Below are positions 6,985 to 54,699 of a stretch of DNA of 64,000 nt, piece after piece; within the stretch, counting starts at the first letter, position 1; each line of letters begins with the position of its first letter. The stretch comes from Cordylochernes scorpioides. Taxonomy: Eukaryota; Arthropoda; Arachnida; Pseudoscorpiones; Chernetidae. Below the pieces are notes generated by a model. It had not been told where the DNA came from and did not search any database. It was given only the letters and a program-made list of their open reading frames with translations. The translations under genes were made by a program, and so were the position numbers. The stretch lies in the NCBI GenBank assembly GCA_030710605.1, contig CP092882.1, positions 21,338,446 to 21,402,445 of the forward strand, written 5' to 3'.

Positions 6985-7190
6985 AATATTTATTAAAGTA
7001 AATGGCATCTCCTGATCGTGCAACTAAAGGTTACTGATGGCTTGCGCCATCTGTCGGAATAAATATCAACTAATTGTTGATTTTTATTTATTCCATAATT
7101 GGCAAAAATACCCTATCTTGGTTTAACAAAAAAAGCTAGCCACGTACGCGTTCCGGGGGTGTTGGCCCTCATCAGCGTGGTGTAAGCTAA
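6985..7190 (-). mobile_element. Hammerhead-bearing unit e
   Basis: On the minus strand a hammerhead-like motif (7134-7188) is followed by a body with a TTCCGACAGATGGCGCAAGC hairpin and CAGGAGATGCC near its end. It follows unit d (7205-7510) in the same orientation, so the two form a direct tandem with 287 bp between equivalent core positions. The body is shared with the palindrome at 22050-22335 and the fragment near 400. Confidence 0.6.
7134..7188 (-). ncRNA. Hammerhead ribozyme motif e, core mutated
   Basis: The minus strand has CTGATGA at 7169-7175. Inner stem I CCACG/CGTGG and outer stem AGCT/AGCT lie around an internal loop. Stem II is about GGG/CCC, and GGAA stands in place of the required GAAA. 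Stem III is short (CGCGT) with A at the cleavage position. The A-to-G change in the core predicts loss of activity. The stems are kept although sequence differs from the other copies. Confidence 0.55.
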
Positions 7191-7204
7191 ATTTTATTGT
7201 ACAA

Positions 7205-7510
7205 TTCCACTTTTGTACTATTTTGACTTATATATTTGTGTGTGTGAAAATAATTGAAATATATATATACATATAAATGGTCAGGTGTTTATATTAAAAA
7301 TAATAAAAGCATTTCCTAATCCCTCACATGAACATTTCAGAAGGCAGAGCGCCATCTCGAGCAACAAAAATAAACTAAACATCGATATTTGGCGAACCCG
7401 TTTTCTTGATAATTCAAGAGAAGTCAACCACAATCGCGTTTCGGGCTGTTGGCCCTCGTCAGGGTGGTGCAGGCTGAACCTCCACCTCCAAAAATACTAA
7501 TGACGCGTAC
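7205..7510 (-). mobile_element. Hammerhead-bearing unit d
   Basis: On the minus strand this runs from the ribozyme motif (7424-7474) through TTGAATTATCAAGAAAACGG, the GATGGCGCTCTGCC box, and a tail ending ATAAACACCTGACC. It matches the bodies at 35816-36060 and 36205-36510. It directly precedes unit e. Confidence 0.6.
7424..7474 (-). ncRNA. Hammerhead ribozyme motif d, degenerate
   Basis: CTGACGA (7456-7462), stem II GGGC/GCCC with loop CAACA, and GAAA are intact on the minus strand. The segment after GAAA reads CGCGATTGTGG, where the better copies have CGCGTTCGTGG, so the U at 16.1 is lost and stem I is shortened to CCAC/GTGG. It is probably inactive. Confidence 0.55.
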
Positions 7511-22335: not shown

Positions 22336-22422
22336 CTTTTTAAAAATTTAATCATGAACCTTATCCCAGTTCAATATTACTTTTGTACTATTTTTCCACG
22401 CATATTTATATATATATATATA

Positions 22423-23708
22423 CCAGGTCTATTAGTATGAAACGCGAAAATGGGCGCCAGAGTCCGCTGTGCAACTTTATTTGAGCCGACGGTGGCGCTG
22501 TTGTAGGCGTTTTGTTCTTTGACTCACGTGGCATCAGCATGCGTGCAGTTTTAGAAAAATTCAAATCGTGAAAAATTTCTGGAGCTCGTGGAAAATGGCG
22601 ATTTCCGAGCCAAAAAGTGCCCATTTGCGGGAAGTTTTGTTGTTCGCCTTCAACTGGAAGAAAAGTGCCACTGAAGCCCACCGAATACTCGAGGAGGTTT
22701 ACAGCGACCACGCTCTGAGCAAATCGCAATGTTACAGGTGGTTTAAAAAATTCCAAAGTGGCGATTTTGAACTTGATAATGAACCACATGGAAAACCGCC
22801 CCAAAAGTTCGAGGAAGCTGAGCTGCAAGCTTTGTTGGAAGAGGACAGTACCCAAATGCAGGAGAAACTCGCAAAACAGCTCCAGGTGTCTCAAGGTGCT
22901 GCTTCTCTACGTTTAAACAGCCTCGGAATGACCCAAAAGCTTTCAAGATGGGTCCCCCACGAGTTGAGCGAAAGGCAGCAATAACGGCGTCTGGTAACCT
23001 GCGAAGGGCTGCTCGCCAGGCATGAAAAGAAGTCATTTTTGCACCGAATCGTAACTTCTGATGAGAAATGGATCCATTTCAGCAATCCTACGCGCCAAAA
23101 GTCGTGGGGCCTGCCCGGCCAATTTCCAAAACAGACGCCTAGGCCCAATCGCTTCGGAAAAAAGGCAATGCTTTGCATATGGTGGGACCAGACGGGGGTA
23201 GTATATTTCGAGCTCCTAAAACCTGGCAAAATGGTCAATACTAGTCGCTACGAACAACAAATGCACAGTTTGAGAGAGGCGTTGAATGAAAAAAGACCGG
23301 AATGGCGTGAAAAGCACAACAACCTGATACTGCAGCATGACAACGCTCCAGCCCACAACGCAACGGTGGTCAAAAACACCATAAAAGACTTGGGCTGGGA
23401 ACTCTTACCCCACCCGCCGTACTCACCAGACTTAGCGCCGTCGAACTACCACCTTTTCACATCTTTAGGACACGCCCTAAAAAACCAGGAATTTTCGAAC
23501 TCAGACATACTCCGAAAATGACTTGTTGACTGGTTCGACTCAAAAGGAATAGAAATTTTCAGACAAGGAATTCGAAAATTGCCTGAAAAGTGGTCCGAGT
23601 GTATAGCTAATCAGGGCAGTTACTTTGAATAAAAAATCTTTTGTTGTATGGAATTGGTGAACTTTTGAATTCACTGAAAATTTTCGCGTTTCATACTAAT
23701 AGACCTGG
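22423..23708 (+). mobile_element. Complete mariner transposon, mauritiana type
   Basis: The element is 1286 bp with perfect 29-bp terminal inverted repeats at 22423-22451 and 23680-23708 (CCAGGTCTATTAGTATGAAA at each outer end) and a TA on both sides. This is the usual length and form of mariner. It carries one transposase frame. Perfect terminal repeats suggest a recent insertion, but the gene is broken. Confidence 0.95.
22595..23632 (+). pseudogene. Mariner transposase, inactivated
   Basis: This is a 345-codon frame from ATG at 22595, the same length as Mos1. N-terminal helix-turn-helix segments (residues 1-110) include SKSQCYRWFKKFQSGDF and EAELQALLEED. The linker motif WVPHEL is followed by an in-frame TAA at 22982-22984 (codon 130). 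The catalytic domain has SDEKW (D156), QHDNAPAH (D249) and the third box as PSNYHLF, so residue 284 is Asn where an active D,D34D enzyme needs Asp. A second stop, TGA at 23519-23521 (codon 309), precedes the GSYFE end. Spacing between the second and third catalytic positions is exactly 34. The GDFELDNEPHGKPP stretch places it nearest the mauritiana subfamily. Three independent lesions mean no active enzyme. Confidence 0.95.
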
Positions 23709-24218: not shown

Positions 24219-25223
24219 TGTTAAGAACGGGGTAATTAAAAAAGCTCGTGGAGGAAAAGAAAAATTCTGAACGCTCCACAAACCCCCTTTTTAACAAAAT
24301 AAAAACTTTAACCTAAAGTTTGATATTGTTTTGGGCTGCCTTGGGTGTTCAAGCAAGAAAAAAGGAAGACAACAAAAAGGTTACACATATAAAGTTTTGT
24401 TTAATGTTAGCTATAAAATGAAGGATAAAAAAATATATGAAAACTTATTATTTTTGTATATTCCAAAATTTTTGCATGCAACTTAAATGTTTTTTAACAA
24501 AAAGAAAATATATAATGATGATATTGACGAAAATAGAAAAAAAACTTAGTAAAAATAAGAAAAAGAAAAATACTACAAAATATGCTAGATTAACATAAAA
24601 AATATATCAATTTTTAGGAAATAAAAGCATGTGAGAGAGTGCTCACCAAAAAACAGTTCCTCTCAGTTGTTAGGTCGGCTTGCCCGAGCCCCCCTGCCTT
24701 GGAAGCACAATTTTCGTCTGTCCTCGACGAACTTCCTGGAATCTTCAGATGAAGCACAATATTCGTCGCTCTTGACGTACTCCAACCACTATGCGAATCT
24801 CTCAACGATTCGTCTCGGCTTCACCTTTCTTTGAGATGTCAGCCACTCAGTCCCTTCTCAGACCGCTTGTATGGTCGTTTATGGAAGATGGACGAAGATC
24901 CCGGAGCTCCTCTTGGGCAAGCCCCCGCGAGGATTTTTTCTTGTCTTGTCGGCACAACTGTGACACCAACTCTGGCGCCCGCGCCCTGACCTTTTTGACC
25001 CCTCCGCCCCTCCAATTGGTCGGTGGGTACTTTGGACGGTCCATCCGGCCGGTGGACGCTTACATTCTCTCGGCAAGGGGGGGCCGGTGTGTGAAAAGAG
25101 GAGAAGAAAAAGCAAAAAATAGATTCCCCTTCGCTGAGGGGTCAGACACACAAAAAACCAAAAATATGAAAAAATAGTTGTAATATTTACATATATACAT
25201 ACAATATTCCATGAGTTCTAACA
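24219..25223 (-). repeat. 3' LTR of the BEL/Pao element
   Basis: On the plus strand it starts TGTTAAGAACGGGG and ends GAGTTCTAACA. It is about 1005 bp. The GC-rich part (24640-25120) contains a 128-codon open frame that repeats in the other LTR and is not thought to be a gene. If a TATAA shared by both LTRs is counted, the outer edge is 24214. Confidence 0.85.
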
Positions 25224-25291
25224 TACCCCCACCTTTTCTTTGTGTGAAAACACAAAAAAAAAACAAGGAAATGTGCTCTCCCTTTCTTTTG

Positions 25292-25452
25292 TCACTGATT
25301 CAAAACATCAGGAGCAAACCTTATTGGTTTGCGGACTTCACGTCCGGATCTTGTTTTGATCGTTAGAGGTTTTTTATCCCCAGAGGCCTTTTCAGAAGTT
25401 TCCTCAGAGGAAATCTCAAGGGGAAACAGTCTCTGTACAGGGCGTAGCCATT
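25292..25452 (-). pseudogene. C-terminal tail of BEL/Pao Pol
   Basis: A 53-codon frame starts EWLRPVQRLFPLEI and ends GREVRKPIRFAPDVLNQ before a stop. This R-P-V/I-x-R-L-x-P-L-E-I ending, followed by a TRSGR-x-V-K/R-K-P stretch, is the extreme C-terminus of BEL/Pao integrase. It sits directly against the interrupted reverse transcriptase, so the deletion joins the two at about 25452. Confidence 0.7.
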
Positions 25453-25455
25453 CGC

Positions 25456-26870
25456 CTATTGATGTCTAAAAACGGTTAACTTCATAGGGTCAGTTTGATC
25501 CCACCAAAGGAAGCGAAGAAAGTCCTGGTCTTGAAGCTGCACTGTAATCATCTGAAATGCCTTTCGAATATCGGCTAGAACACCAATACCCTTTTCTCTA
25601 AACCTAATTAATATTTCAGGTATTTTTTCCAAAAGGTTAGGTCCCTTTTCTAGATAGTCATTCAGAGAGAGACCATTATACGACCTGCAGGAGGCATCGA
25701 AAACAGGACGAAGAGGCGTCGTCCTACTTTCAGCCTTGAACACCGGCCTATGCGGTAAATAATGGCCCTTCTTTTGAGGCCTATTCTCCTCTATCCTCTC
25801 AATTAGGCCCTCTCTCTCCCATTCTTGAAGAATAGTAGAATATTCAATAACCATTTTCTCCTTCCTTAACTTACTAGTGCATGCTTCCAATCTCCTCTGC
25901 GCTATTCCTAAATTTGAGGGTATATTATTTCTTTCGCATTTCCATGGTAGCGCGACTGAATATCGTTGATCTTCATCCCTCTTTATATTTTTTATAAAAT
26001 GTTCCCTTAGTTCAGTTTCTCTTTTCTTTTTTGAGACAACTTCGATGGGATCTTGGATTCCCAAGATATCCAGCTCCCAAAGATCTTTCAAGTTGTTTCT
26101 TGCAACCAACATATTCAATGCAATTTGGACCTTATCCTCCTTACCCACCACCGGAGATTGCCCCATAAGCGTCCATCCTAATTTTGTCTCTACGGCAGTT
26201 AGGTCCTCTCCTAGATGGACGACCTTCCCGGTCAGTAATTGTCCAAAATAGTCACTACCTATTAAAATATCTATTTCCTCATTTCTAAAATTTGACGGGT
26301 GAATATAGATCTTTTTCCGTTTTAATTTGTATAACAAACGTCCTCTTGGAATCGGCGGTATCCTTGCACAAATTTCTGGTTGATCGAGGGCGACTATGTC
26401 TACATCAATTTTATTGGTTAGACTTCCCAGTTTCAAAACATATTTTCCGTGCAACGCCTCCTTCATATTTCCTCCCCCGAAAAGAGATTTTTCCAAACTT
26501 ATCTCTCCTATTTTGTTTAAACCCAGTTTTTCGACAATTGATCTCTTTATATAGGAGTAGTGACTTCCAGTGTCAAATAACACTTTTACTTCTTTAGTCT
26601 CTTTAGCCCCTTTCAATTTCGCCACGGAAGTCATGAGTAAGATGTCATTGGCGCATGTTCGCGCAGACATATTAACACCCGTGCATGTTGCATTTCCTTC
26701 ATTAACAACCTTAGATGTTTCACCTTTGAAACTATTGTTTCCTCCTTGCTTCAAAGCAATTTTATTGCAAAAGATATCTAGATGATCTTTTCCGCAATTT
26801 CTACATTTTATGTCTGCTCGGCATTCCCTTTTCAGATGGTTACCCTTTAGACATTTAAAGCAGACTTTAG
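25456..26870 (-). pseudogene. Pol of the BEL/Pao element: protease and partial reverse transcriptase
   Basis: The frame opens at about 26870 with two zinc knuckles (CFKCLKGNHLKREC and CRNCGKDHLDIFC). It continues through an aspartic protease (VLFDTGSHYSYI; DTG is the active site), a spacer, and the start of the reverse transcriptase (PVFDASCRSYNG, VLADIRKAFQMI, FLWW). The Asp of the first catalytic box (LADIRKAF) is present. The Y/F-x-D-D box and everything after it are deleted. The zinc knuckles belong to the end of Gag in related elements, so the gag and pol frames are separated here by a -1 shift near 26875. Not functional on its own. Confidence 0.85.
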
Positions 26871-26876
26871 CCTCCT

Positions 26877-28046
26877 TTAATCCCTCTCGCTAGGTGTAAG
26901 CCGCGAGGCAACAAAACATCTACTACTCAGGTGATTATCCCTCTGGCAGAATATGCATTTTGTCTTAAATGCGCTGCCGAATAAATTGGAGACAGTGGGC
27001 GGTGTCTTCCGAGGAGTCTTTAGTTGAGAACCTGTAGCCCTCATTGAGCTATTACCCTCAAAATTCTCCTTAGCAAATGCCATTCGCTCAGCACCCTTCA
27101 CCTCATCCCGAAGGAAGTCCATCAGAGCCTGAAGTCTACCGCTGGCATCGCTCTTATCTCCATTCTCCGCTCCTTCTTCTTTTATCCCATAGCCCACAGC
27201 AGGATTCCTCTGCCAAACCTGAATAATGTCCAATGGCAGACTCGACTCAACCAATGGGTAGAGAAACACGCCTGCCATCTCCGTGTTAACACCCAGTGAT
27301 TCTAGGTTCTTTAAGTGAGCCGTCAGATCATCGTAGATCTCGTCAAGAGGAAGGTTTTCTTTCCTTGCATTAGAAACAACCAATTTCAACAGTCTCCTTA
27401 TGTAGAGTTCTATGAGAAGGTTCTTATCTCCGAATCGATCTTTTAGGGCTTGTACTACCTTGGGATAATTATCCTCAGTTATGGGGTAACTGCACACAAG
27501 ACGTTGAGCTCTGGATCCCTCGACTACCGCTTGTAGCAGATAGTGAAATTTATCTACATCCCCCAGAGTTTCATCGTCATTGATTTTACTAAATTGCCCC
27601 CACCATGAGAGCCAATCCTCTAGGTTGCCCTTAAATTTTGGTAGCTCCACTTTTGGCAACCTAATAGTTCTTTTAGATTCGGTATTTACAACCGAATTCA
27701 CCGCGGACTCCACCAATGAGCCGTCGACCCTATCCCTCGCGGTTTCACACCGAGACAAATATTTATTTTCTATGTCAAACATCCCTTGAACATAGTTTTC
27801 ACAACCCTCGAATTCTTCTTCGATTTTGACCTCCGTTATGGTTTCATCCTCCAGAAGGAGCCCATGATACCTTGAATCAATTTCACTTATTTCCTTGGAG
27901 AGAGCACAAATTCGGTTATATTTAGCTCTATATTTTTCTGTATCGAAATCTGGCTTTTCTATTTCAGCCCAAAACTCGGTGGACAGCCGAGTAAAAATAG
28001 CTCTTTTGGGGGCTCTAGCCCTTTTTAAGATATCAATATTCTGCAT
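26877..28046 (-). CDS. Gag of the BEL/Pao element
   Basis: This is a 389-codon frame from ATG (MQNIDILKRARAPKRAIFTR) to a stop at 26877. It has the DUF1759-like BEL Gag pattern: LPKVELPKFKGNLEDWLSWW, then FHYLLQAVVEGSRAQRLV, and DRFGDKNLLIELYIRRLL. A zinc knuckle, CIFCQRDNHLSSRC, sits close to the C-terminus. Gag forms the virus-like particle. The end is truncated: two further knuckles are encoded in the next frame, so either a frameshift mutation or a programmed -1 shift separates it from pol. Confidence 0.85.
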   Translation of the reverse strand: MQNIDILKRARAPKRAIFTRLSTEFWAEIEKPDFDTEKYRAKYNRICALSKEISEIDSRYHGLLLEDETITEVKIEEEFEGCENYVQGMFDIENKYLSRCETARDRVDGSLVESAVNSVVNTESKRTIRLPKVELPKFKGNLEDWLSWWGQFSKINDDETLGDVDKFHYLLQAVVEGSRAQRLVCSYPITEDNYPKVVQALKDRFGDKNLLIELYIRRLLKLVVSNARKENLPLDEIYDDLTAHLKNLESLGVNTEMAGVFLYPLVESSLPLDIIQVWQRNPAVGYGIKEEGAENGDKSDASGRLQALMDFLRDEVKGAERMAFAKENFEGNSSMRATGSQLKTPRKTPPTVSNLFGSAFKTKCIFCQRDNHLSSRCFVASRLTPSERD

Positions 28047-28149
28047 TATTTACTATATAATTTTTCTCGAAACCTTTCTCTCTTTTTTTTTTTTTTTTCC
28101 TTTTCTCGATTTGACCAGCCAATGCAGCCTACCCGGGGACGCCAAAAAA

Positions 28150-29158
28150 TATAATGTTAAGAACGGGGTAATTAAAAAAGCTCGTGGAGGAAAAGAAAAA
28201 TTCTGAACGCTCCACAAACCCCCTTTTTAACAAAATAAAAACTTTAACCTAAAGTTTGATATTGTTTTGGGCTGCCTTGGGTGTTCAAGCAAGAAAAAAG
28301 GAAGACAACAAAAAGGTTACACATATAAAATTTTGTTTAATGTTAGCTATAAAATGAAGGATAAAAAAATATATGAAAACTTATTATTTTGTATATTCCA
28401 AAATTTTTGCATGCAACTTAAATGTTTTTTAACAAAAAGAAAATATATAATGATGATATTGACGAAAATAGAAAAAAAAACTTAGTAAAAATAAGAAAAA
28501 GAAAAATACTACAAAATATGCTAGATTAACATAAAAAATATATCAATTTTTAGGAAATAAAAGCATGTGAGAGAGTGCTCACCAAAAAACATTTCCTCTC
28601 AGTTGTTAGGTCGGCTTGCCCGAGCCCCCTGCCTTGGAAGCACAATTTTCGTCTGTCCTCGACGAACTTCCTGGAATCTTCAGATAAAGCACAATATTCG
28701 TCGCTCTTGACGTACTCCAACCACTATGCGAATCTCTCAACGATTCGTCTCGGCTTCACCTTTCTTTGAGATGTCAGCCACTCAGTCCCTTCTCAGACCG
28801 CTTGTATGGTCGTTTATGGAAGATGGACGAAGATCCCGGAGCTCCTCTTGGGCAAGCCCCCGCGAGGATTTTTTCTTGTCTTGTCGGCACAACTGTGACA
28901 CCAACTCTGGCGCCCGCGCCCTGACCTTTTTGACCCCTCCGCCCCTCCAATTGGTCGGTGGGTACTTTGGACGGTCCATCCGGCCGGTGGACGCTTACAT
29001 TCTCTCGGCAAGGGGGGGCCGGTGTGTGAAAAGAGGAGAAGAAACAGCAAAAAATAGATTCCCCTTCGCTGAGGGGTCAGACACACAAAAAACCAAAAAT
29101 ATGAAAAAATAGTTGTAATATTTACATATATACATACAATATTCCATGAGTTCTAACA
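28150..29158 (-). repeat. 5' LTR of the BEL/Pao element
   Basis: It matches the 24219-25223 LTR apart from about seven or eight substitutions and one-base indels. It is followed on the minus strand by the primer-binding-site-like TGGCGTCCCCGGGT. The 5' side (plus position 29159) is flanked by AATGTTATAA, the same ten bases found left of the other LTR. Confidence 0.85.
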
Positions 29159-29902: not shown

Positions 29903-29916
29903 TATATATGTGTGCA

Positions 29917-30251
29917 GAAGCATAGGGCGCTTCTCCCGTCAAAATAAACGTCAAAAACTGACGCCATCTATTGACCGTCGCCGCAAACTAGCGTCCTCGG
30001 GTCGGTGACAAAGCCACAACACCAGCTTTGGCAAATTGAGAAGCGTCCACCTAGAGAGCCCTAGACTGACGAGGGCCATTAGCCCGAAACCATGGTCTCT
30101 AGGTGGACGCTTCTCAATTTGCCAAAGCTGGTGTTGTGGCTTTGTCACCGACCCGAGGCCGCTAGTTTGCGGCGACGGTCAATAGATGGCGTCAGTTTTT
30201 TATTTTATTTTTTTTGACGTTCATTTTGACAGGAGAAGCGCCCTATGCTTC
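29917..30251. mobile_element. Palindromic element with hammerhead at its apex
   Basis: The arms at 29917-30055 and 30098-30251 are near-perfect reverse complements (CATAGGGCGCTTCTCC at the outside, AATTGAGAAGCGTCCACC inside). The 42-base centre holds a hammerhead core. A second, incomplete copy of the left arm plus ribozyme lies at 30645-30822. Confidence 0.8.
30060..30103 (+). ncRNA. Hammerhead ribozyme f, core intact
   Basis: Core: CTGACGA at 30066-30072 and GAAA at 30086-30089. Stem II is GGGC (30073-30076) with GCCC (30082-30085), loop CATTA. Stem III is ACC/GGT around a two-base loop. The cleavage triplet is GTC, with the scissile bond after C30097. Stem I is CCTAGA (30060-30065) with TCTAGG (30098-30103). 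This is a type I layout with a very short stem III, as in retrozymes and Penelope-like elements. All conserved bases are present, so self-cleavage is plausible. Short stem III motifs often work best as dimers. The copy is in sense with the inferred SEA-gene intron. Confidence 0.8.
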
Positions 30252-30312
30252 TATGGATCAATTTCCTCCCGGCAATATTTACATCTATATATGTGTGTGT
30301 AAAGGAAATAAT

Positions 30313-30600: not shown

Positions 30601-30644
30601 TTGAAAATAATTTCTGGGTAACTATTGCTCAAATATATGCAGAA

Positions 30645-30850
30645 GCATAAGGCGCTTCTCCCGTCAAAATAAACGTCAAAAACTGACGCCATCTATTGAC
30701 CGTCGCCGCAAACTAGCGGCCTCGGGTCGGTGACAAAGCCACAACACCAGCTTTGGCAAATTGAGAAGCGTCCACCTAAAGAGCCCTAGACTGACGAGGG
30801 CCATTAGCCCGAAACCATGGTCAGGTGTTGATATTAAAAACAAAATCAGC
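30645..30850 (+). mobile_element. Second copy of the 29917 element, ribozyme end fused to an inverted tail
   Basis: Positions 30645-30822 repeat 29917-30097 almost exactly, then switch at the cleavage position to AGGTGTTGATATTAAAAA, the inverted tail of the other hammerhead units (compare 7283 and the complement of 36460). Confidence 0.7.
30785..30822 (+). ncRNA. Hammerhead ribozyme g, 3' half of stem I missing
   Basis: CTGACGA (30791-30797), stem II GGGC/GCCC, GAAA, and stem III ACC/GGT are all present. The sequence ends its homology exactly at GGTC, the cleavage triplet. TCTAGG of stem I is replaced by AGGTGT, so this copy cannot cleave in cis. Confidence 0.65.
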
Positions 30851-31020
30851 CTTTCCTGACCGCTCTGCCATTTGAAATGCTCAAGCGATTTTCCTTCGAT
30901 TTCTCCTTCTTTGTTAAACTTTCTTGGAATACCTTTTACGCTCCTTCTGATGGTACCATTTTCATTGAGATTAGTCAACTTTTTTATTTAAAAAGGCTTT
31001 TTTTGGACTGGCATTTATGG

Positions 31021-31075
31021 TTAGGTTAGATTAGGTTCGGTTAGGTTAGGTTCGGTTAGGTTCGGTTAGGTTAGG
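31021..31075. repeat. Interstitial TTAGG/TTCGG telomere-like repeat
   Basis: About ten units of GGTTA and GGTTC variants lie in a row. A shorter run (TTAGGTTAGGTTAGG) lies at 32270-32285 at the other end of the satellite array. TTAGG is the arthropod telomere unit. Confidence 0.75.
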
Positions 31076-31224
31076 TTTTTTTGGTGTTTTTTTTTTGATG
31101 AATGAAGAATGAAATGAATGATGAATTAAAAATGAATGATGATTTTTGAATCTTTTTTTTTTTTTGTTTTTTTTTTGGTGTTTTTGAATCTTTTTTTTTT
31201 AGACAAACCTTTACTCGGGTAAAA

Positions 31225-32275
31225 CTGGAACTTCATTATGATCATTATTATCATTATCTAATGCTAATTATTATTATTATTATCAACATATATAGTCACG
31301 ACCGTCTTTCCTGGCCTCAGTCACGGATGCGCGCGCATCATCATTATGATCATTATCATTATCTAATGATAATAATAATTATTATTATCAACATATATCA
31401 ACATATATAGTCACGACCGTCTTTCCTCAACAATTCCTCAATTCCTCATGTCACGGATGCGCGCGCATCATCATTATGATCATTATCATTATCTAATGAT
31501 AATAATAATAATAAATATTATTATATTATTATTATTATTATCAACATATATAGTCACGACCGTCTTTCCTCATCGCTGTCCTCAATTCCTCATGTCACGG
31601 ATGCGCGCGCATCATCATTATGATCATTATCATTATCTATCAACATATATAGTCACGACCGTCTTTCCTCATCGCTGTCCTCAATTCCTCATGTCACGGA
31701 TGCGCGCGCATCATCATTATGATCATTATCAGTATCTAATGATAATAATAATAATAATTATTATTATTATATAATTATTATTATTATTATTATCAACATA
31801 TATAGTCACGACCGTCTTTCCTCATCGCTGTCCTCAATTCCTCATGTCACGGATGCGCGCGCATCATCATTATGATCATTATCTTCTATTGAAGCTTCTA
31901 TCTTTATAATTATGTATATTTACAAAAAGTCAATTCGCTCGCGCCTCTAGCGGTGAAAATGAGGGGTAATACCAGCTGAACTAATGTACATGTAAAGTTT
32001 GGAGCGGGACGTTTCACAAGAGTGACATCCACGGCTCCAATTTATAATTGTAACAAATAGTATTTGAATAAAACATTCCATCGAGTAAAACACGGGCGTT
32101 GCCCGGGTCATTCGGCTAGTCAACATATATAGTCACGACCGTCTTTCCTGGCCTCTGTCACAAATGCGCGCGCATCATCATTATGATCATTATCATTATC
32201 TAATGATAATAATAATTATTATTATCAACATATATAGTCACGACCGTCTTTCCTGGCCTCTGTCACGGATTAGGT
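31225..32275. repeat. Satellite array with variable (TTA)n spacers
   Basis: Seven copies of TATAGTCACGACCGTCTTTCC occur at roughly 31290, 31398, 31550, 31646, 31799, 32120 and 32230. Each is followed by (CCTCAATTCCTCATG)TCACGGATGCGCGCGCATCA and the palindromic TTATGATCATTATC. Period varies from about 95 to 155 bp because of TAATAATAA tracts. The array is interrupted at 31886-32112. Confidence 0.85.
31886..32112 (-). repeat. Helitron-like fragment inside the satellite array
   Basis: The right end reads AAAACACGGGCGTTGCCCGG, then GTCATTCGGCTAGT, the inverse of the module at 23714. It also contains GGAGCGGGACGTTTCACAAG and TTTATAATTGTAACAAATAG, shared with 43990-44110. The neighbouring satellite units resume immediately after CTAGT. 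Confidence 0.6.
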
Positions 32276-32594
32276 TAGGTTAGGTTTTTTTGGTGTTTTT
32301 TGAGGCGCGCGCTTCAACCAATATAAATTTGTATATATAAATAAAGATTGAAATATCTATATTAATTATTTGAAAAATTAATATTTTCAAGGCGCGCGCG
32401 CCTTATTCAATATATATTGAAATTTCAAATTAACATATTTAAATTTTTTTTTTTAATTTTAAAATTTTATTTTATCAATGACATTTAAATACATATATTT
32501 TAATCTGTTTTTAAAATGTTTATTCCATTCCTTTTTTTTACTTTTTTACTACTTAGCTTACCTTAGTGCTGTCACTCTGGTTAGCATATTCTAT

Positions 32595-33144
32595 ATATAA
32601 ACATAATGGATGATTTTATGTTTTTTTCTCAAAGAATTTTCGAAAATGAATACGATTATTTTTCTGAAAATGAATCAATCACACATACAACACCGAAATC
32701 TAAACATGCATCTCATGTATCAAATAAAAAAATTAAAATGGATACAGCAGAAGATGAAAAATTAGCACAAAAACAAATAAATGAAGATATAACAAATATT
32801 AATAAAATAGAGGTAAACCAGAGTAAATCAAATTCACAAAACTTTGACATTGTTTCAATGTCATTGTTTCAATGTTTCATTGTTTCAATGTCAAAGTTTT
32901 GTGAATTTGATTTACTCTGGTTTACCTCTATTTTATTAATATTTGTTATATCTTCATTTATTTATTTTTGTGCTAATTTTTTATCTTCTGCTGTATCCAG
33001 TTTAATTTTTTTATTTGATACATGAGATGCATGTTTAGATTTCGGTGTTGTATGTGTGATTGATTCATTTTCAGAAAAATAATCGTATTCATTTTCGAAA
33101 ATTCTTTGAGAAAAAAAACATAAAATCATCCATTATGTTTATAT
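32595..33144. repeat. Near-perfect hairpin with 258-bp arms
   Basis: The arms at 32595-32852 and 32886-33144 are reverse complements with only a few mismatches and one single-base indel (seven T against eight A). The spacer is 33 bases. The left arm begins just before the likely start codon of the helicase copy at 32606. Confidence 0.9.
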
Positions 33145-35785: not shown

Positions 35786-35815
35786 AAAACAACCACATTA
35801 CAATATATATTAAAA

Positions 35816-36060
35816 ATAAAGAAGGCATCTCCTGACCTCGAGCACATGTGCTTTTTAGATGGCAGAGCGCCATCTAGTGGAGCAAAGATAAACTAAACGT
35901 TTATTAAGCTTGCTCCGAGATATTTGGCCAACCCAATTTCTTGATAAATCAAGAAAAGCCATCCACGAACGCGTTTCGCGCTGTTGGCGCTCGTCAGCGT
36001 GGAGAAGGCTGTAACCACTGCGACCAAAAATATTTTTTGGTCCCAATGGCTTCCCGAAAA
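35816..36060 (-). mobile_element. Hammerhead unit b (inverted)
   Basis: On the minus strand the order is GGTCGCAGTGGTTACAGCC, ribozyme, TTGATTTATCAAGAAATTGG, an AACGTTTAGTTTATCTTTGC box, GATGGCGCTCTGCCATC hairpin, and CAGGAGATGCCTTCTTTA. It is the inverted partner of 36205-36440. Confidence 0.75.
35957..36010 (-). ncRNA. Hammerhead ribozyme b, core intact
   Basis: On the minus strand it is base-for-base the same as copy a (36251-36304): AGCC outer stem, TCCACG/CGTGGA stem I, CTGACGA, GCGC-CAACA-GCGC stem II, GAAA, a two-pair stem III and cleavage after GTT (between plus positions 35968 and 35967). It is antisense to the inferred host intron, so it would act only in transcripts of the element itself. 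Confidence 0.75.
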
Positions 36061-36204
36061 ATGTGCTCGTGGTCAGGAGATGCCTTCTTTATTTTTAATA
36101 TCAACACCTGACCCACTTATCTTTTATATATTTTTTCTATTGTTTTTCATGTGTAAAGCGACTTTACGCAAATTTGGCCTTAAATACCCATTTCTTGATT
36201 TTTC

Positions 36205-36510
36205 GGGAAGCCATTGGGACCAAAAAAATATTTTTGGTCGCAGTGGTTACAGCCTTCTCCACGCTGACGAGCGCCAACAGCGCGAAACGCGTTCGTGGAT
36301 GGCTTTTCTTGATTTATCAAGAAATTGGGTTGACCAAATATCTCGGAGCAAGCTAAATAAACGTTTAGTTTATTTTTGCTCCACTAGATGGCGCTCTGCC
36401 ATCTAAAAAGCACATGTGCTCGTGGTCAGGAGATGCCTTCTTTATTTTTAATATCAACACCTGACCCACTTATCTTTTATATTTTTTTTCTATTGTTTTT
36501 CATATATATA
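36205..36510 (+). mobile_element. Hammerhead unit a
   Basis: Same structure as unit b in the sense orientation. It continues past CAGGAGATGCCTTC into a tail TTTTTAATATCAACACCTGA, CCCACTTATC. That tail is also present at 36062-36155 without a ribozyme, 353 bp upstream, giving an LTR-like direct repeat. Module R-A follows at 36513. Confidence 0.75.
36251..36304 (+). ncRNA. Hammerhead ribozyme a, core intact
   Basis: CTGACGA is at 36264-36270. Stem II is GCGC (36271-36274) with GCGC (36280-36283), loop CAACA. GAAA is at 36284-36287. Stem III is AC/GT closed by a two-base loop, and the triplet is GTT with cleavage after T36293. Stem I has an inner TCCACG/CGTGGA part, an asymmetric internal loop (TTC opposite T) and an outer AGCC/GGCT part. 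Internal loops in stem I facing loop II are what natural fast hammerheads use for tertiary contact. It is in sense with the inferred host intron. Confidence 0.8.
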
Positions 36511-48763: not shown

Positions 48764-50604
48764 ATAAATAGTTATTTAATTTTATAGTCCAGTTTTGTAT
48801 TAAAATTATCTTCACTATTATGATCATTTAAATACAAATTATAAAATTTGTAAAATGTTATTAATTTGTAGATAGAGAGAGAAAAAAAAAAAAAAAAATT
48901 CATTACTTCTTTTACATCCTCAAGTTAATTATATATTTATAATTAATAACAATAAAAAAAATTAACAAAGTAACGTCTATTACATCGGCTTTTACACGTC
49001 ATTCAGACATACTCTAATCCTATATATAGAATAATCGAAGAGATAATATATATAATAGTTAGAAAAAAGAGAGAAAGACAGAACCATGCACTTTTAATCA
49101 AACTAATAATAAGGGAAAAAAAAAAAGAGTTTTATAAAGAAGGTAGATAAAATTGTTAGTATATATATATATATTTTTTTATGATTTTATGTTTTATCCT
49201 TTTTTTTTTTTTTTTTTAAGATTTTTAAAGGTTTTTTTATTTTATAATATGATTATAAATAGTTGTATTTAGTAATATATCTATAGTATGAATTAACATT
49301 TGTTATAAGTTTGGATATTATGTTTTGAAACCCTAATGGTAGACCAGACATACACAAAAAACTTTAAATTGAAATAAAATGGAAAAAGAGATCTGCTGAA
49401 ACGGGGATCATCAGATAAAATTTCAGCGACATTTCAACCCCTCCTTTATTATGTCATAGATCTCTTTTAAACCGTATTTTATGTGTTAATATTAAGTTGT
49501 TTCAGTGAAATATTTAAATGAACATATAACAGATACCAGTGTTAACAAATTCAAACTGTAAACCTACCTTGACCGCTGCGTCCTCCATTGTGTATATCTA
49601 TTTCTGGCTTGCACATGTCGCGGGAGGGGAATGTCCCCCCACATTTCAAATTTAGACCATTTCTTCAGAATTTATTTGAACAACAAGAAAATTAAAGAAG
49701 ATAGGAAAAATAGTTAAAGGAAGAAAGCTAAGTTTTATAATCTTTACAGATAGTTATATCAAAATAACTGATTTAACACTTAATCATCTTTTAATATTCC
49801 TTTAAAAAGGCAAATTATAAGAGTTTAATAAAGCTATTAATTGTGCAAATTCATCTTTATTTAACTTCCATTTTCCTCCCCAGAAATTGGAGATTAAACA
49901 AAAATGAAATATATACTTTAAAACTTTAAAAATCTTGTGAAAAAATCTTTTAATCAGTTATTTAATAAAAGTTTAATTAACTGTTAAAGATTATAAATTT
50001 GTTTTAGTTAATATTAAGAGAAATTATAGAAAGTTGATTTCATAAATGGATATTTCCATTTATTTTTTTTTAAATATTTTATAATTGATATACTGTTGAA
50101 ATATTTTACTTGTTTGATACTAAATTTGTTTTTAATAAATTCCATGTTTAAATTTTTAACATCTTCTATGAAATTATCTAATATATTATTTATTCTATAA
50201 AATCTTAGAAACTGACCATAATATATACCTTTACAGCAATTTAATGATATATTAGAATTCATATTACAGTATTTTATAATATTGAAATTATAATTACTCT
50301 TTTTATTATAAACTCTAACAGCACTATTTGTAAGGTCTATATTCAAGTCTAAAAAGTTAACTTTTTTGTTTCTATAAATTTTTTCATTGTTCTTAAGTTT
50401 CAAGTATTTAGGATATATTTCAGGTATTAATTTTTTAAACAGTGGATTATTAAATATTATTATGTCATCTACATATCGGAATATTTGCCAATTAATATTA
50501 TTTTGTAGAAAGTATTCTCTTTCGTACCAGAACAATATTAAATTTGCTAGTACATTTGCTAATACAAAACTGGACTATAAAATTAAATAACTATTTATTA
50601 TTAT
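48764..50604 (-). mobile_element. Retroelement remnant with inverted ends, possibly Penelope-like
   Basis: AATAGTTATTTAATTTTATA, then GTCCAGTTTTGTATTA at 48770-48804, recurs as its reverse complement at 50565-50600. Between them on the minus strand lies a reverse transcriptase frame (50014-50535) and AT-rich DNA. Terminal repeats in inverted orientation are known from Penelope-like elements, which fits but does not prove the assignment. Confidence 0.5.
50014..50535 (-). pseudogene. Reverse transcriptase fragment
   Basis: This 173-codon open frame starts close to the catalytic box. FRYVDDIIIFNN holds the Y-V-D-D active site. Then come VNFLDLNIDL, a YNFNIIKYCNMNSNIS stretch and GIYYGQFLRFYRINN, ending FMKSTFYNFS. 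The FLDL motif and the G-x-Y-x-x-Q-x-x-R-x-x-R-I pattern are found in Penelope-like reverse transcriptases. The fingers and early palm are missing and codon usage has drifted to A/T. A LINE or DIRS origin is possible. Confidence 0.65.
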
Positions 50605-53955: not shown

Positions 53956-54435
53956 TGTTGTAATATATTTCAATATATACTTAATATCTCCATATGTAAT
54001 AGAGTTATATTGTAACAACCAGAACTGTAGACAATTCAACTCTCCACTTTGGCCATCATGTGATATAAAAGGAAATAATAAAATTAAATTGAGTGACAGC
54101 CTGCGCCAGACAGGAGAAAGGTCTCCGATTACACCGTTGGTCCGAAAAACATAGTCGGATTACCACCTGTCTCTCCCTGACACTAGAATAGATCAGCCCC
54201 CTCTACAGACATGCCTTGACCATCGTCGGCGTCTCCCTCTCTCTCTGGTGATATCCAACATGCCTCGTCCTTTCGTGAAATCCTATTCACGCCTGAACCC
54301 ACTCTGATCATGTGGCCACCACGACTGCATCTAACCAACATACCACACTCCACTACAACACAACATTTAGCCGACACGATACACTCTTCATTTCGACAGG
54401 AACGTTTGCATCACAGCAGAAAGTCGACAGGATCA
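53956..54435 (+). repeat. Noncoding module R-A, copy 3
   Basis: TGTTGTAATATATTTCAATA at the start, AATAAAATTAAATTGAGTGA in the middle, then CCTGCGCCAGACAGGAG, TATTCACGCCTGAACCCAC and a GTCGACAGGATC end. It is longer than copies 1 and 2 because of an extra segment near 54020. Confidence 0.65.
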
Positions 54436-54455
54436 TTTTTGGTCGCAGTGGTATA

Positions 54456-54509
54456 GCCTACTCCACGCTGACGAGCGCCAACAGCGCGAAACGCGTTCGT
54501 GGATGGCTT
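54456..54509 (+). ncRNA. Hammerhead ribozyme c, core intact
   Basis: Core CTGACGA at 54469-54475 and GAAA at 54489-54492. Stem II is GCGC/GCGC with loop CAACA, stem III two pairs, cleavage after T54498 (GTT). Stem I inner CCACG/CGTGG, outer AGCC/GGCT (54456-54459 with 54506-54509), and internal loop TACT opposite AT instead of TTC opposite T. It is in sense with the inferred host intron. Confidence 0.8.
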
Positions 54510-54699
54510 TTCTTGATTTATCAAGAAATTGGGTTGGTCAAATATCAGGGAACAGGCTAAATTAATATTTAGTTGATTTCTGTTCCACCAGATGGCACTC
54601 TGCCTTCTGTAAAGCACATGTGCTCCTGGTCAGGATATACTTTATTTTTAATATATATATATATATTCGATATGTATAACATATATATTATATAGCGCA

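What the first reader, a model, noticed from the sequence alone, without database searches (positions are those of the whole stretch)
36251..36304. Intact type I hammerhead ribozymes in a dispersed intronic element family
Copies a, b and c carry every conserved hammerhead base (CTGANGA, GAAA, a U at 16.1 and a permitted nucleotide at 17) with stems I, II and III all formed. Stem III has only two pairs, and stem I has an internal loop opposite a five-base loop II. That arrangement is known for retrozymes and Penelope-like elements. I know of no host-gene role for such copies in arthropods.
Basis: partly seen in the sequence, partly recalled or inferred. Interest (0 to 1): 0.88.

Follow-up and report, generated by a model that had tools for sequence, protein, structure and literature searches.

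The report
Hammerhead ribozymes in Penelope-mobilised retrozymes
A short non-coding mobile element, present in thousands of copies in this animal genome, carries a well-preserved self-cutting RNA (a hammerhead ribozyme) and seems to be copied by the enzymes of Penelope-type retrotransposons; it is a new member of a known kind, useful because its copies bear the insertion marks of that machinery.

Summary
The motif is real. Hammerhead folds lie at 36248-36309 (+), 35952-36013 (-), 54452-54513 (+) and, in a second family, 30050-30113 (+); none of 100 shuffled windows held one. Across 16 copies the helices covary. The genome holds 8661 matches to the family-A core pattern and 11260 to that of B; reversed patterns match nowhere.

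Correction: stem III is a palindrome without a loop (ACGCGU, ACCAUGGU), so one RNA cannot form it; two copies can, as a double hammerhead. The intronic setting is not shown.

A (about 345 nt) and B (about 319 nt) are non-coding and sometimes tandem. They show Penelope marks: head-to-head pairs, AT-rich flanks, and a 3' tail on exactly one arm (by reading: A 14 of 16 pairs, B 11 of 11). Penelope-like elements with a hammerhead-like core of their own sit in the same genome. Best reading: non-autonomous retrozymes mobilised by Penelope-like enzymes, which papers propose. Cleavage in cells is untested; a test on copy 5' ends was inconclusive. Nothing points to a host-gene role.

The parts
36061..36508 (+). 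Family A copy, plus arm of a head-to-head pair: about 1.3 units, with a tail at its 3' end
   Evidence: Direct repeat 36061-36155 / 36414-36508 at 353 nt spacing and inverted repeat 35807-36061 / 36200-36454; tail CAACACCTGACC...TTTTTCAT before AT-rich DNA
36248..36309 (+). Family A hammerhead, predicted cleavage after 36293
   Evidence: Structure scan; model R1 84 bits, a training sequence; Rfam HH9 28 bits, below its threshold
35807..36061 (-). Family A copy, minus arm of the pair, no tail
35952..36013 (-). Family A hammerhead in the minus arm, predicted cleavage after 35968
54435..54654 (+). Family A copy (88% identical to the query copy), no tail
54452..54513 (+). Family A hammerhead, predicted cleavage after 54497
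7285..7496 (-). Older subfamily A' copy with decayed hammerhead at 7417-7478 (U16.1 replaced by A)
7129..7191 (-). Another, diverged hammerhead match of family A type
   Evidence: model R1, 54.6 bits; BLAST match 7116-7188; not accepted by the structure scan
29916..30290 (.). Family B head-to-head pair; minus arm without tail, plus arm with tail (outer ends approximate)
   Evidence: Inverted repeats; arm ends read
30050..30113 (+). Family B hammerhead, predicted cleavage after 30097
30633..30837 (+). Second family B copy; hammerhead core present, 3' half of stem I replaced by inverted family A sequence
50014..50574 (-). Fragment of the reverse transcriptase frame of a very abundant Penelope-like element with N-terminal GIY-YIG; no matching hammerhead found in it; not shown to be the partner

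Best explanation
Families A and B are non-autonomous, non-coding retroelements of the animal retrozyme kind, mobilised in trans by Penelope-like retrotransposon enzymes. Proposed cycle: transcription of tandem units gives multimeric RNA; neighbouring hammerheads pair through their palindromic stem III and cleave as a double hammerhead; unit RNAs may be ligated into circles; a Penelope-like enzyme nicks AT-rich DNA and starts reverse transcription at one of two sites near the unit's 3' end (giving copies with or without the tail), often producing 5'-truncated head-to-head pairs. Shown here: motif, covariation, copy number, tandem units, head-to-head orientation, two discrete 3' ends with one-sided tail, AT-rich flanks, co-resident Penelope-like elements. 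Inferred: transcription, cleavage, circles, and which Penelope-like element supplies the enzyme.
For: Motif and chance control. Covariation over 16 aligned copies: 95.3% of cells paired against 80.3% in shuffles; 33 two-sided changes against 11.1; slid structures 42.2% or less. Double hammerhead -41.1 (A) and -49.6 (B) kcal/mol against -16.9 and -17.6 per monomer hammerhead without stem III; for B the best computed dimer has the same core. Copy number. Tandem units 337-350 nt (A), 319-320 nt (B). Neighbours within 700 nt among the first 100 listed places: A 7 head-to-head, 1 same strand, 0 convergent; B 10, 1, 0; the core of the canonical Penelope-like element 19, 0, 0. Tail on exactly one arm, by reading: A 14 of 16 simple pairs, B 11 of 11. 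The 12 bases beyond A 3' ends are 87-88% A+T (26 ends without, 24 with tail) against 64.6% for the loci. Literature: an optional tail of 31 or 30-40 bp and head-to-head as the most frequent arrangement (passages of PMC3846280, PMC11167929). Elements with RVT_1 and C-terminal GIY-YIG and a hammerhead-like core beside the frame: L069, L070.
Against: No autonomous element sharing the A or B sequence was found, but only five places (holding 7 of the 146 listed GIY-YIG matches) and one later fragment were looked at. The hammerhead-like cores of L069 and L070 pass only a loosened structure scan (one of two cores in L069), and neither model R1 nor Rfam finds them. For A, a regular expression gave one tail in only 9 of 14 pairs; the rest rests on reading diverged tails. 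Two convergent A neighbours occur (L006, L038). The A double hammerhead (-41.1) is hardly better than two free monomers in their best folds (2 x -20.3), and another A dimer is better (-47.7). Copies ending near the cleavage bond cluster 0-2 nt before it in A but not in B, and their total hardly exceeds a control window, so use of cleaved RNA as template is not shown. No expression data.
Confidence: 0.72

Rival explanations
1. A and B are the pseudo-LTRs of autonomous Penelope-like families (present or extinct) rather than independent retrozymes; solo and tandem pseudo-LTRs are what is seen.
For: Hammerheads, tails and inverted arms are features of Penelope pseudo-LTRs (PMC3846280, PMC11167929 passages); canonical elements here carry a hammerhead-like core in that place.
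Against: In 95 A and B loci, frames of 150 aa or more occur in 8; seven of the nine frames were given to Pfam and none is a Penelope-like protein (one Copia-type RVT_2, one RNase H), though flanks reach about 1.5 kb at most. Same-strand neighbours recur at unit length with nothing between. No similarity of A or B to the non-coding parts of the elements compared, except one 58-nt match of A's 3' region in L070. Few autonomous elements were looked at.
Confidence: 0.22
2. Cleavage-dead passengers: the hammerhead is conserved only by recent amplification and plays no part in the cycle.
For: The 43 listed best matches to the A copy are 95-100% identical (40 of 388 candidates scored), so conservation within A says little; PMC11167929 reports that hammerhead mutants do not affect insertion by a Penelope-like protein in vitro (passage).
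Against: A, A', B and C differ in sequence but keep the fold, with two-sided changes in stems I and II. In 60 of 126 A matches, those in loci not chosen by the A core, invariant core bases outside CpG mismatch in 1.3% of 237 cells, non-CpG flanks in 5.6% of 9684.
Confidence: 0.18
3. A co-opted host element: the intact pair near the helicase gene processes its transcript.
For: Nearness of the pair to helicase exons; a role of conserved hammerheads in mRNA biogenesis is suggested for amniotes (passage in PMC7229834).
Against: The same core occurs thousands of times elsewhere; a closely similar pair lies on another contig (L002); a place inside an intron is not shown.
Confidence: 0.02
4. A palindromic DNA transposon or satellite whose hammerhead likeness is accidental.
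For: Long inverted repeats and sub-threshold Rfam miRNA-type hits over the pair look like a foldback element.
Against: No motif in any of 100 shuffles; covariation; inverted junctions vary from copy to copy while 3' ends fall at two places, as in retroelements.
Confidence: 0.02

Closest known systems
Animal non-LTR retrozymes (Cervera and de la Pena 2020, PMC7229834)
   Same: Units of about 170-400 nt with a type I hammerhead, non-coding, tandem copies, about 5000 copies in a mussel; molluscs to arthropods, crustaceans and insects named (abstract, passages, sections 14 and 17 read)
   Different: A review by the same group says most invertebrate hammerheads form a stable helix III (PMC7761336, passage), and both leave the mobilising element open; here stem III is a loop-less palindrome and the copies carry Penelope end marks. 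B has 50.5% G+C, slightly above the low values given
Small hammerhead variants of Penelope-like elements (Cervera and de la Pena 2014; Lunse et al. 2017)
   Same: Minimal helix III, cleavage as dimers, association with Penelope-like elements (from passages and reference lists in PMC7761336 and PMC6155905; neither paper is held)
   Different: A and B have no long reading frame and a two-part stem I with internal loop
Penelope/Poseidon elements with pseudo-LTR and tail (PMC3846280, PMC11167929; passages)
   Same: Head-to-head inverted copies, optional tail on one arm, AT-rich targets; a hammerhead in the element (PMC11167929)
   Different: A and B are short and non-coding; A tails are 43-50 nt in 22 of 23 measured, slightly longer than the reported 30-40
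pDo500 satellite of Dolichopoda cave crickets (PMC2837043, listing only)
   Same: Arthropod repeat with a hammerhead
   Different: Described there as satellite DNA; A and B are dispersed with retroelement-like ends

Membership tests
Type I hammerhead ribozyme | CUGANGA, GAAA, U16.1, H17, helices I and II formed | tested here: met
Type I hammerhead ribozyme | Helix III within one RNA | tested here: not met
   loop-less palindrome in each of 42 distinct motifs listed; only possible between two RNAs
Type I hammerhead ribozyme | Rfam family score above curated threshold | tested here: not met
   HH9 28 bits in the window, up to 30.8 in loci, threshold 52
Type I hammerhead ribozyme | Self-cleavage after H17 | not testable with these tools
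   5'-end distribution of copies was inconclusive
Animal non-LTR retrozyme | Short non-coding unit of about 150-450 nt with a type I hammerhead, occurring in tandem | tested here: met
   longest frames in doubled units 96 aa (A) and 78 aa (B); many copies are single or inverted rather than tandem
Animal non-LTR retrozyme | Low G+C (below 45-50%) | tested here: inconclusive
   A unit 40.4%, B unit 50.5%
Animal non-LTR retrozyme | Expressed as linear and circular RNA | not testable with these tools
   no RNA data
Penelope-type insertion | Head-to-head inverted arrangement | tested here: met
   2 convergent exceptions
Penelope-type insertion | Optional 3' tail on one of the inverted arms | tested here: met
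   By reading A 14 of 16, B 11 of 11, none with two tails; by regular expression 9 of 14 and 7 of 8
Penelope-type insertion | Target duplication | tested here: inconclusive
   15 of 21 pairs share 8 nt or more, but AT runs give this in 49% of mismatched controls; L083 and L085 have clear 12-nt matches
Autonomous Penelope-like element | Reverse transcriptase with GIY-YIG frame in the element | tested here: not met
   No such frame in the units or found in the 95 loci examined, flanks about 1.5 kb at most

The most novel reading that the evidence does not exclude
Retrozymes of this genome are parasites of the Penelope machinery: two different non-coding units each carry a hammerhead with a loop-less palindromic stem III that works only between two units, plus a Penelope-type reverse-transcription start region, so that a double hammerhead measures out unit-length RNAs for a Penelope-like enzyme. 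This would settle which retroelement moves animal retrozymes.
Probability: 0.48. Interest if true: 0.62.

Novelty: new member of a known kind. Interest (0 to 1): 0.45.

Why it matters
How animal retrozymes move is open in the papers read: Penelope-like elements are called strong or likely candidates in PMC7229834 and PMC7761336. Copies that bear Penelope-type end marks, in a genome that also holds Penelope-like elements, make that proposal directly testable. The palindromic stem III also gives a clear prediction: single units should cleave poorly, tandem units well.

Tried and rejected
Rfam miRNA-type hits over 35962-36299: below threshold; they follow from the inverted pair. The 824-aa Penelope-like element of the window as direct partner: no hammerhead by the scan and no meaningful sequence likeness to A. 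A host-gene role: see rivals.

In-vivo cleavage from copy 5' ends: I first thought ends near the bond were greatly enriched; the control window gave 1340 against 1532, so that was wrong. Within the window A ends cluster 0 to 2 nt before the bond (59 of 84 distinct listed copies; the best three neighbouring positions of the control hold 33 of 82, and the script had compared with 28 of 82, which was not the best three; Fisher p 0.00016 after the correction). B ends do not cluster (292 genome-wide; 87 distinct listed, spread over nine positions), and 46 of those 87 include three or more bases beyond the bond, which speaks against a cleaved template for those copies. Left as inconclusive. An exact junction at the cleavage site in the window's B copies (30097, 30822) did not stand out in other B copies.

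An earlier count said 13 head-to-head pairs for the downstream 34-mer; the recount is 12 (6 same strand, 0 convergent).

Full report
Observation. The hammerhead sequence is at the stated place. A scan for the conserved core with all helices found four motifs in the window: 36264 (+), 35997 (-), 54468 (+), 30066 (+); none of 100 dinucleotide shuffles had one. Rfam reports no hammerhead at its curated thresholds; in a 12-kb search Hammerhead_HH9 scores 28 bits against a threshold of 52, E 0.0015. A covariance model built from 16 copies of this genome finds seven places in the window: the four above, two diverged copies near 7.1-7.5 kb, and the truncated copy at 30791; two of the seven were in its training set.

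Structure. In 16 aligned copies of four groups (A, A', B, C), 95.3% of 192 cells form standard pairs (shuffles 80.3%), with 33 two-sided changes (shuffles 11.1); slid structures pair 42.2% or less. Two other measures are weak: the number of pairs with a two-sided change (6 against 4.2; reached by 24 of 500 shuffles) and further pair types (14 against 12.8; 127 of 500). Two-sided changes mostly separate the groups, so they stand for few events. Stem III is a palindrome without a loop in each of the 42 distinct motifs: ACGCGU in A and most A', ACAUGU in one A' copy, ACCAUGGU in B and C; the canonical Penelope-like element has ACGU. One RNA cannot close it; ViennaRNA rejects two pairs with a two-base loop. 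Two RNAs can: the double hammerhead scores -41.1 kcal/mol for A and -49.6 for B, against best folds of two free monomers of 2 x -20.3 and 2 x -23.6; the best computed B dimer (-54.4) keeps the double-hammerhead core, the best A dimer (-47.7) does not. Dimer action of small Penelope hammerheads is in print (Lunse et al. 2017, title seen in the references of PMC7761336; paper not held).

The element. The window is C20:21338446-21402445 of a 2.62-Gb genome in 24 contigs. The 32-base A core pattern (two free positions) matches 8661 times, the B core pattern 11260 times; the reversed patterns never. A downstream 34-base stretch of A matches 11712 times. Same-strand neighbours lie 337-350 nt apart for A and 319-320 nt for B, with one B case at 249 (L080); this is the unit length. 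The A unit has 40.4% G+C, the B unit 50.5%; doubled units hold no frame above 96 and 78 aa. The plus arm at 36061-36508 spans about 1.3 units, so its template was probably multimeric or circular. 5' ends vary from copy to copy; 3' ends fall at two discrete places.

Penelope marks. [quoted passage not shown] PMC11167929 maps the 30-40 bp tail to the stretch between two reverse-transcription starts and reports AT-rich targets. Here, among neighbours within 700 nt in the first 100 listed places, A has 7 head-to-head, 1 same-strand, 0 convergent, the downstream stretch of A 12, 6, 0 (partly the same loci), B 10, 1, 0, and the core of the canonical Penelope-like element 19, 0, 0. In fetched A loci a regular expression gave 19 head-to-head, 7 same-strand and 2 convergent neighbours. 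Tails in A: by expression 9 of 14 pairs had exactly one and 5 none; reading the ends moves L008, L063 and L108 to one tail and adds L034 and L037, giving 14 of 16, two with none (L059, L096), none with two. Three of the 19 (two in L006, one in L047) are arrays and were left out; in L037 the minus arm is cut short at its 3' end; the L008 tail is much diverged. The anchor missed pairs in L020 (an array), L033 and L049; the last two show one tail each. For B, 7 of 8 pairs by expression, not counting L071, and 11 of 11 by reading (L071, an array; L072, L074, L075, L079, L083, L084, L085, L086, L090; the window pair). A tails measure 43-50 nt in 22 of 23 (one 68), B tails about 36 by reading. The 12 bases beyond A ends are 87.2% (26 ends) and 88.2% (24 ends) A+T, the loci 64.6%. 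Target duplications are blurred by AT runs; L083 and L085 share clear 12-nt stretches.

Autonomous elements. A GIY-YIG search had 17015 candidates, 150 scored, 146 matches. Five places holding seven of these were fetched. L068, L069 and L070 hold frames with a reverse transcriptase motif; [quoted passage not shown] All three have a CTGACGA...GAAA core outside the frame; a loosened structure scan accepts one of two cores in L069 and the one in L070. Model R1 and Rfam do not find these, so their status as hammerheads is weaker than that of A and B. Exact copies of the L069/L070 core number 1390. L066 and L067 belong to a second kind with N-terminal GIY-YIG; L066 matches the 4.28-kb tandem element at 80%, and the fragment at 50014-50574 belongs to that element. 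I call it Naiad-like from memory; Pfam does not recognise its frame. It has no hammerhead by the scan and no meaningful likeness to A. One later fragment (L117) is of the same kind. In 95 A and B loci, nine frames of 150 aa or more lie in eight loci; seven frames were given to Pfam and none is Penelope-like.

Cleavage in vivo. The pattern for copies whose 5' end lies within about 8 nt of the A bond matches 1532 times, a control pattern 21 nt downstream 1340 times, so the site is not much enriched as a whole. Within it 59 of 84 distinct listed copies end 0-2 nt before the bond; the best three neighbouring positions of the control hold 33 of 82. Family B shows no such peak (292 matches; 87 distinct listed). 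This neither shows nor excludes use of cleaved RNA.

Conservation. In 60 of 126 A matches (loci not chosen by the A core), invariant core bases outside CpG mismatch the reference in 1.3% of 237 cells, non-CpG flanks in 5.6% of 9684; the hammerhead window as a whole mismatches more (9.2% of 1125), because the reference copy itself differs from most others at four positions in and near stem I.

Comparison and verdict. A and B meet the main tested features of animal non-LTR retrozymes (PMC7229834; abstract, passages, sections 14 and 17 read) and of Penelope-type insertion, and fail as autonomous Penelope-like elements. That paper and PMC7761336 (passages) propose Penelope-like elements as movers. 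My searches in the held library (lists of 49, 94 and 110 capped) showed no title or abstract start that reports such tails on retrozymes; most listed papers were not opened. New member of a known kind; interest moderate.

Noticed in passing
window 50014-50574 and L017, L018: Penelope-like element with N-terminal GIY-YIG and an 824-aa open frame; 9607 first-look candidates, 150 scored and listed at 99-100% identity to the window fragment, many in tandem at about 4.28 kb: an apparently very recent expansion.
   Followed up: partly
window 32621-33117: 240-nt inverted repeat, 98% complementary, 17-nt spacer, overlapping what may be the first coding exon of the helicase gene (MDDFMFFSQ...): a fold-back of host coding sequence or an assembly artefact.
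   Followed up: no
window 31019-31077: Interstitial (GGTTA)n tract, about 12 copies, of the TTAGG telomere type known from arthropods (recalled), a few hundred bases from a family B copy.
   Followed up: no
window 31233-32340: Minisatellite with nested periods of about 99, 144 and 252 nt.
   Followed up: no
window 24712-29112: Pao/BEL-like element (label recalled; aspartyl protease match at 25456-26889) between near-identical frames at 24776-25177 and 28711-29112, probably its LTRs.
   Followed up: no
window 22406-23521: Mariner-type transposase frames (Transposase_1, DDE_3 in 22985-23521).
   Followed up: no
L021 465-527: A further hammerhead group C with four-base loop II and A17, beside A copies; suggests more hammerhead families in this genome.
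   Followed up: partly
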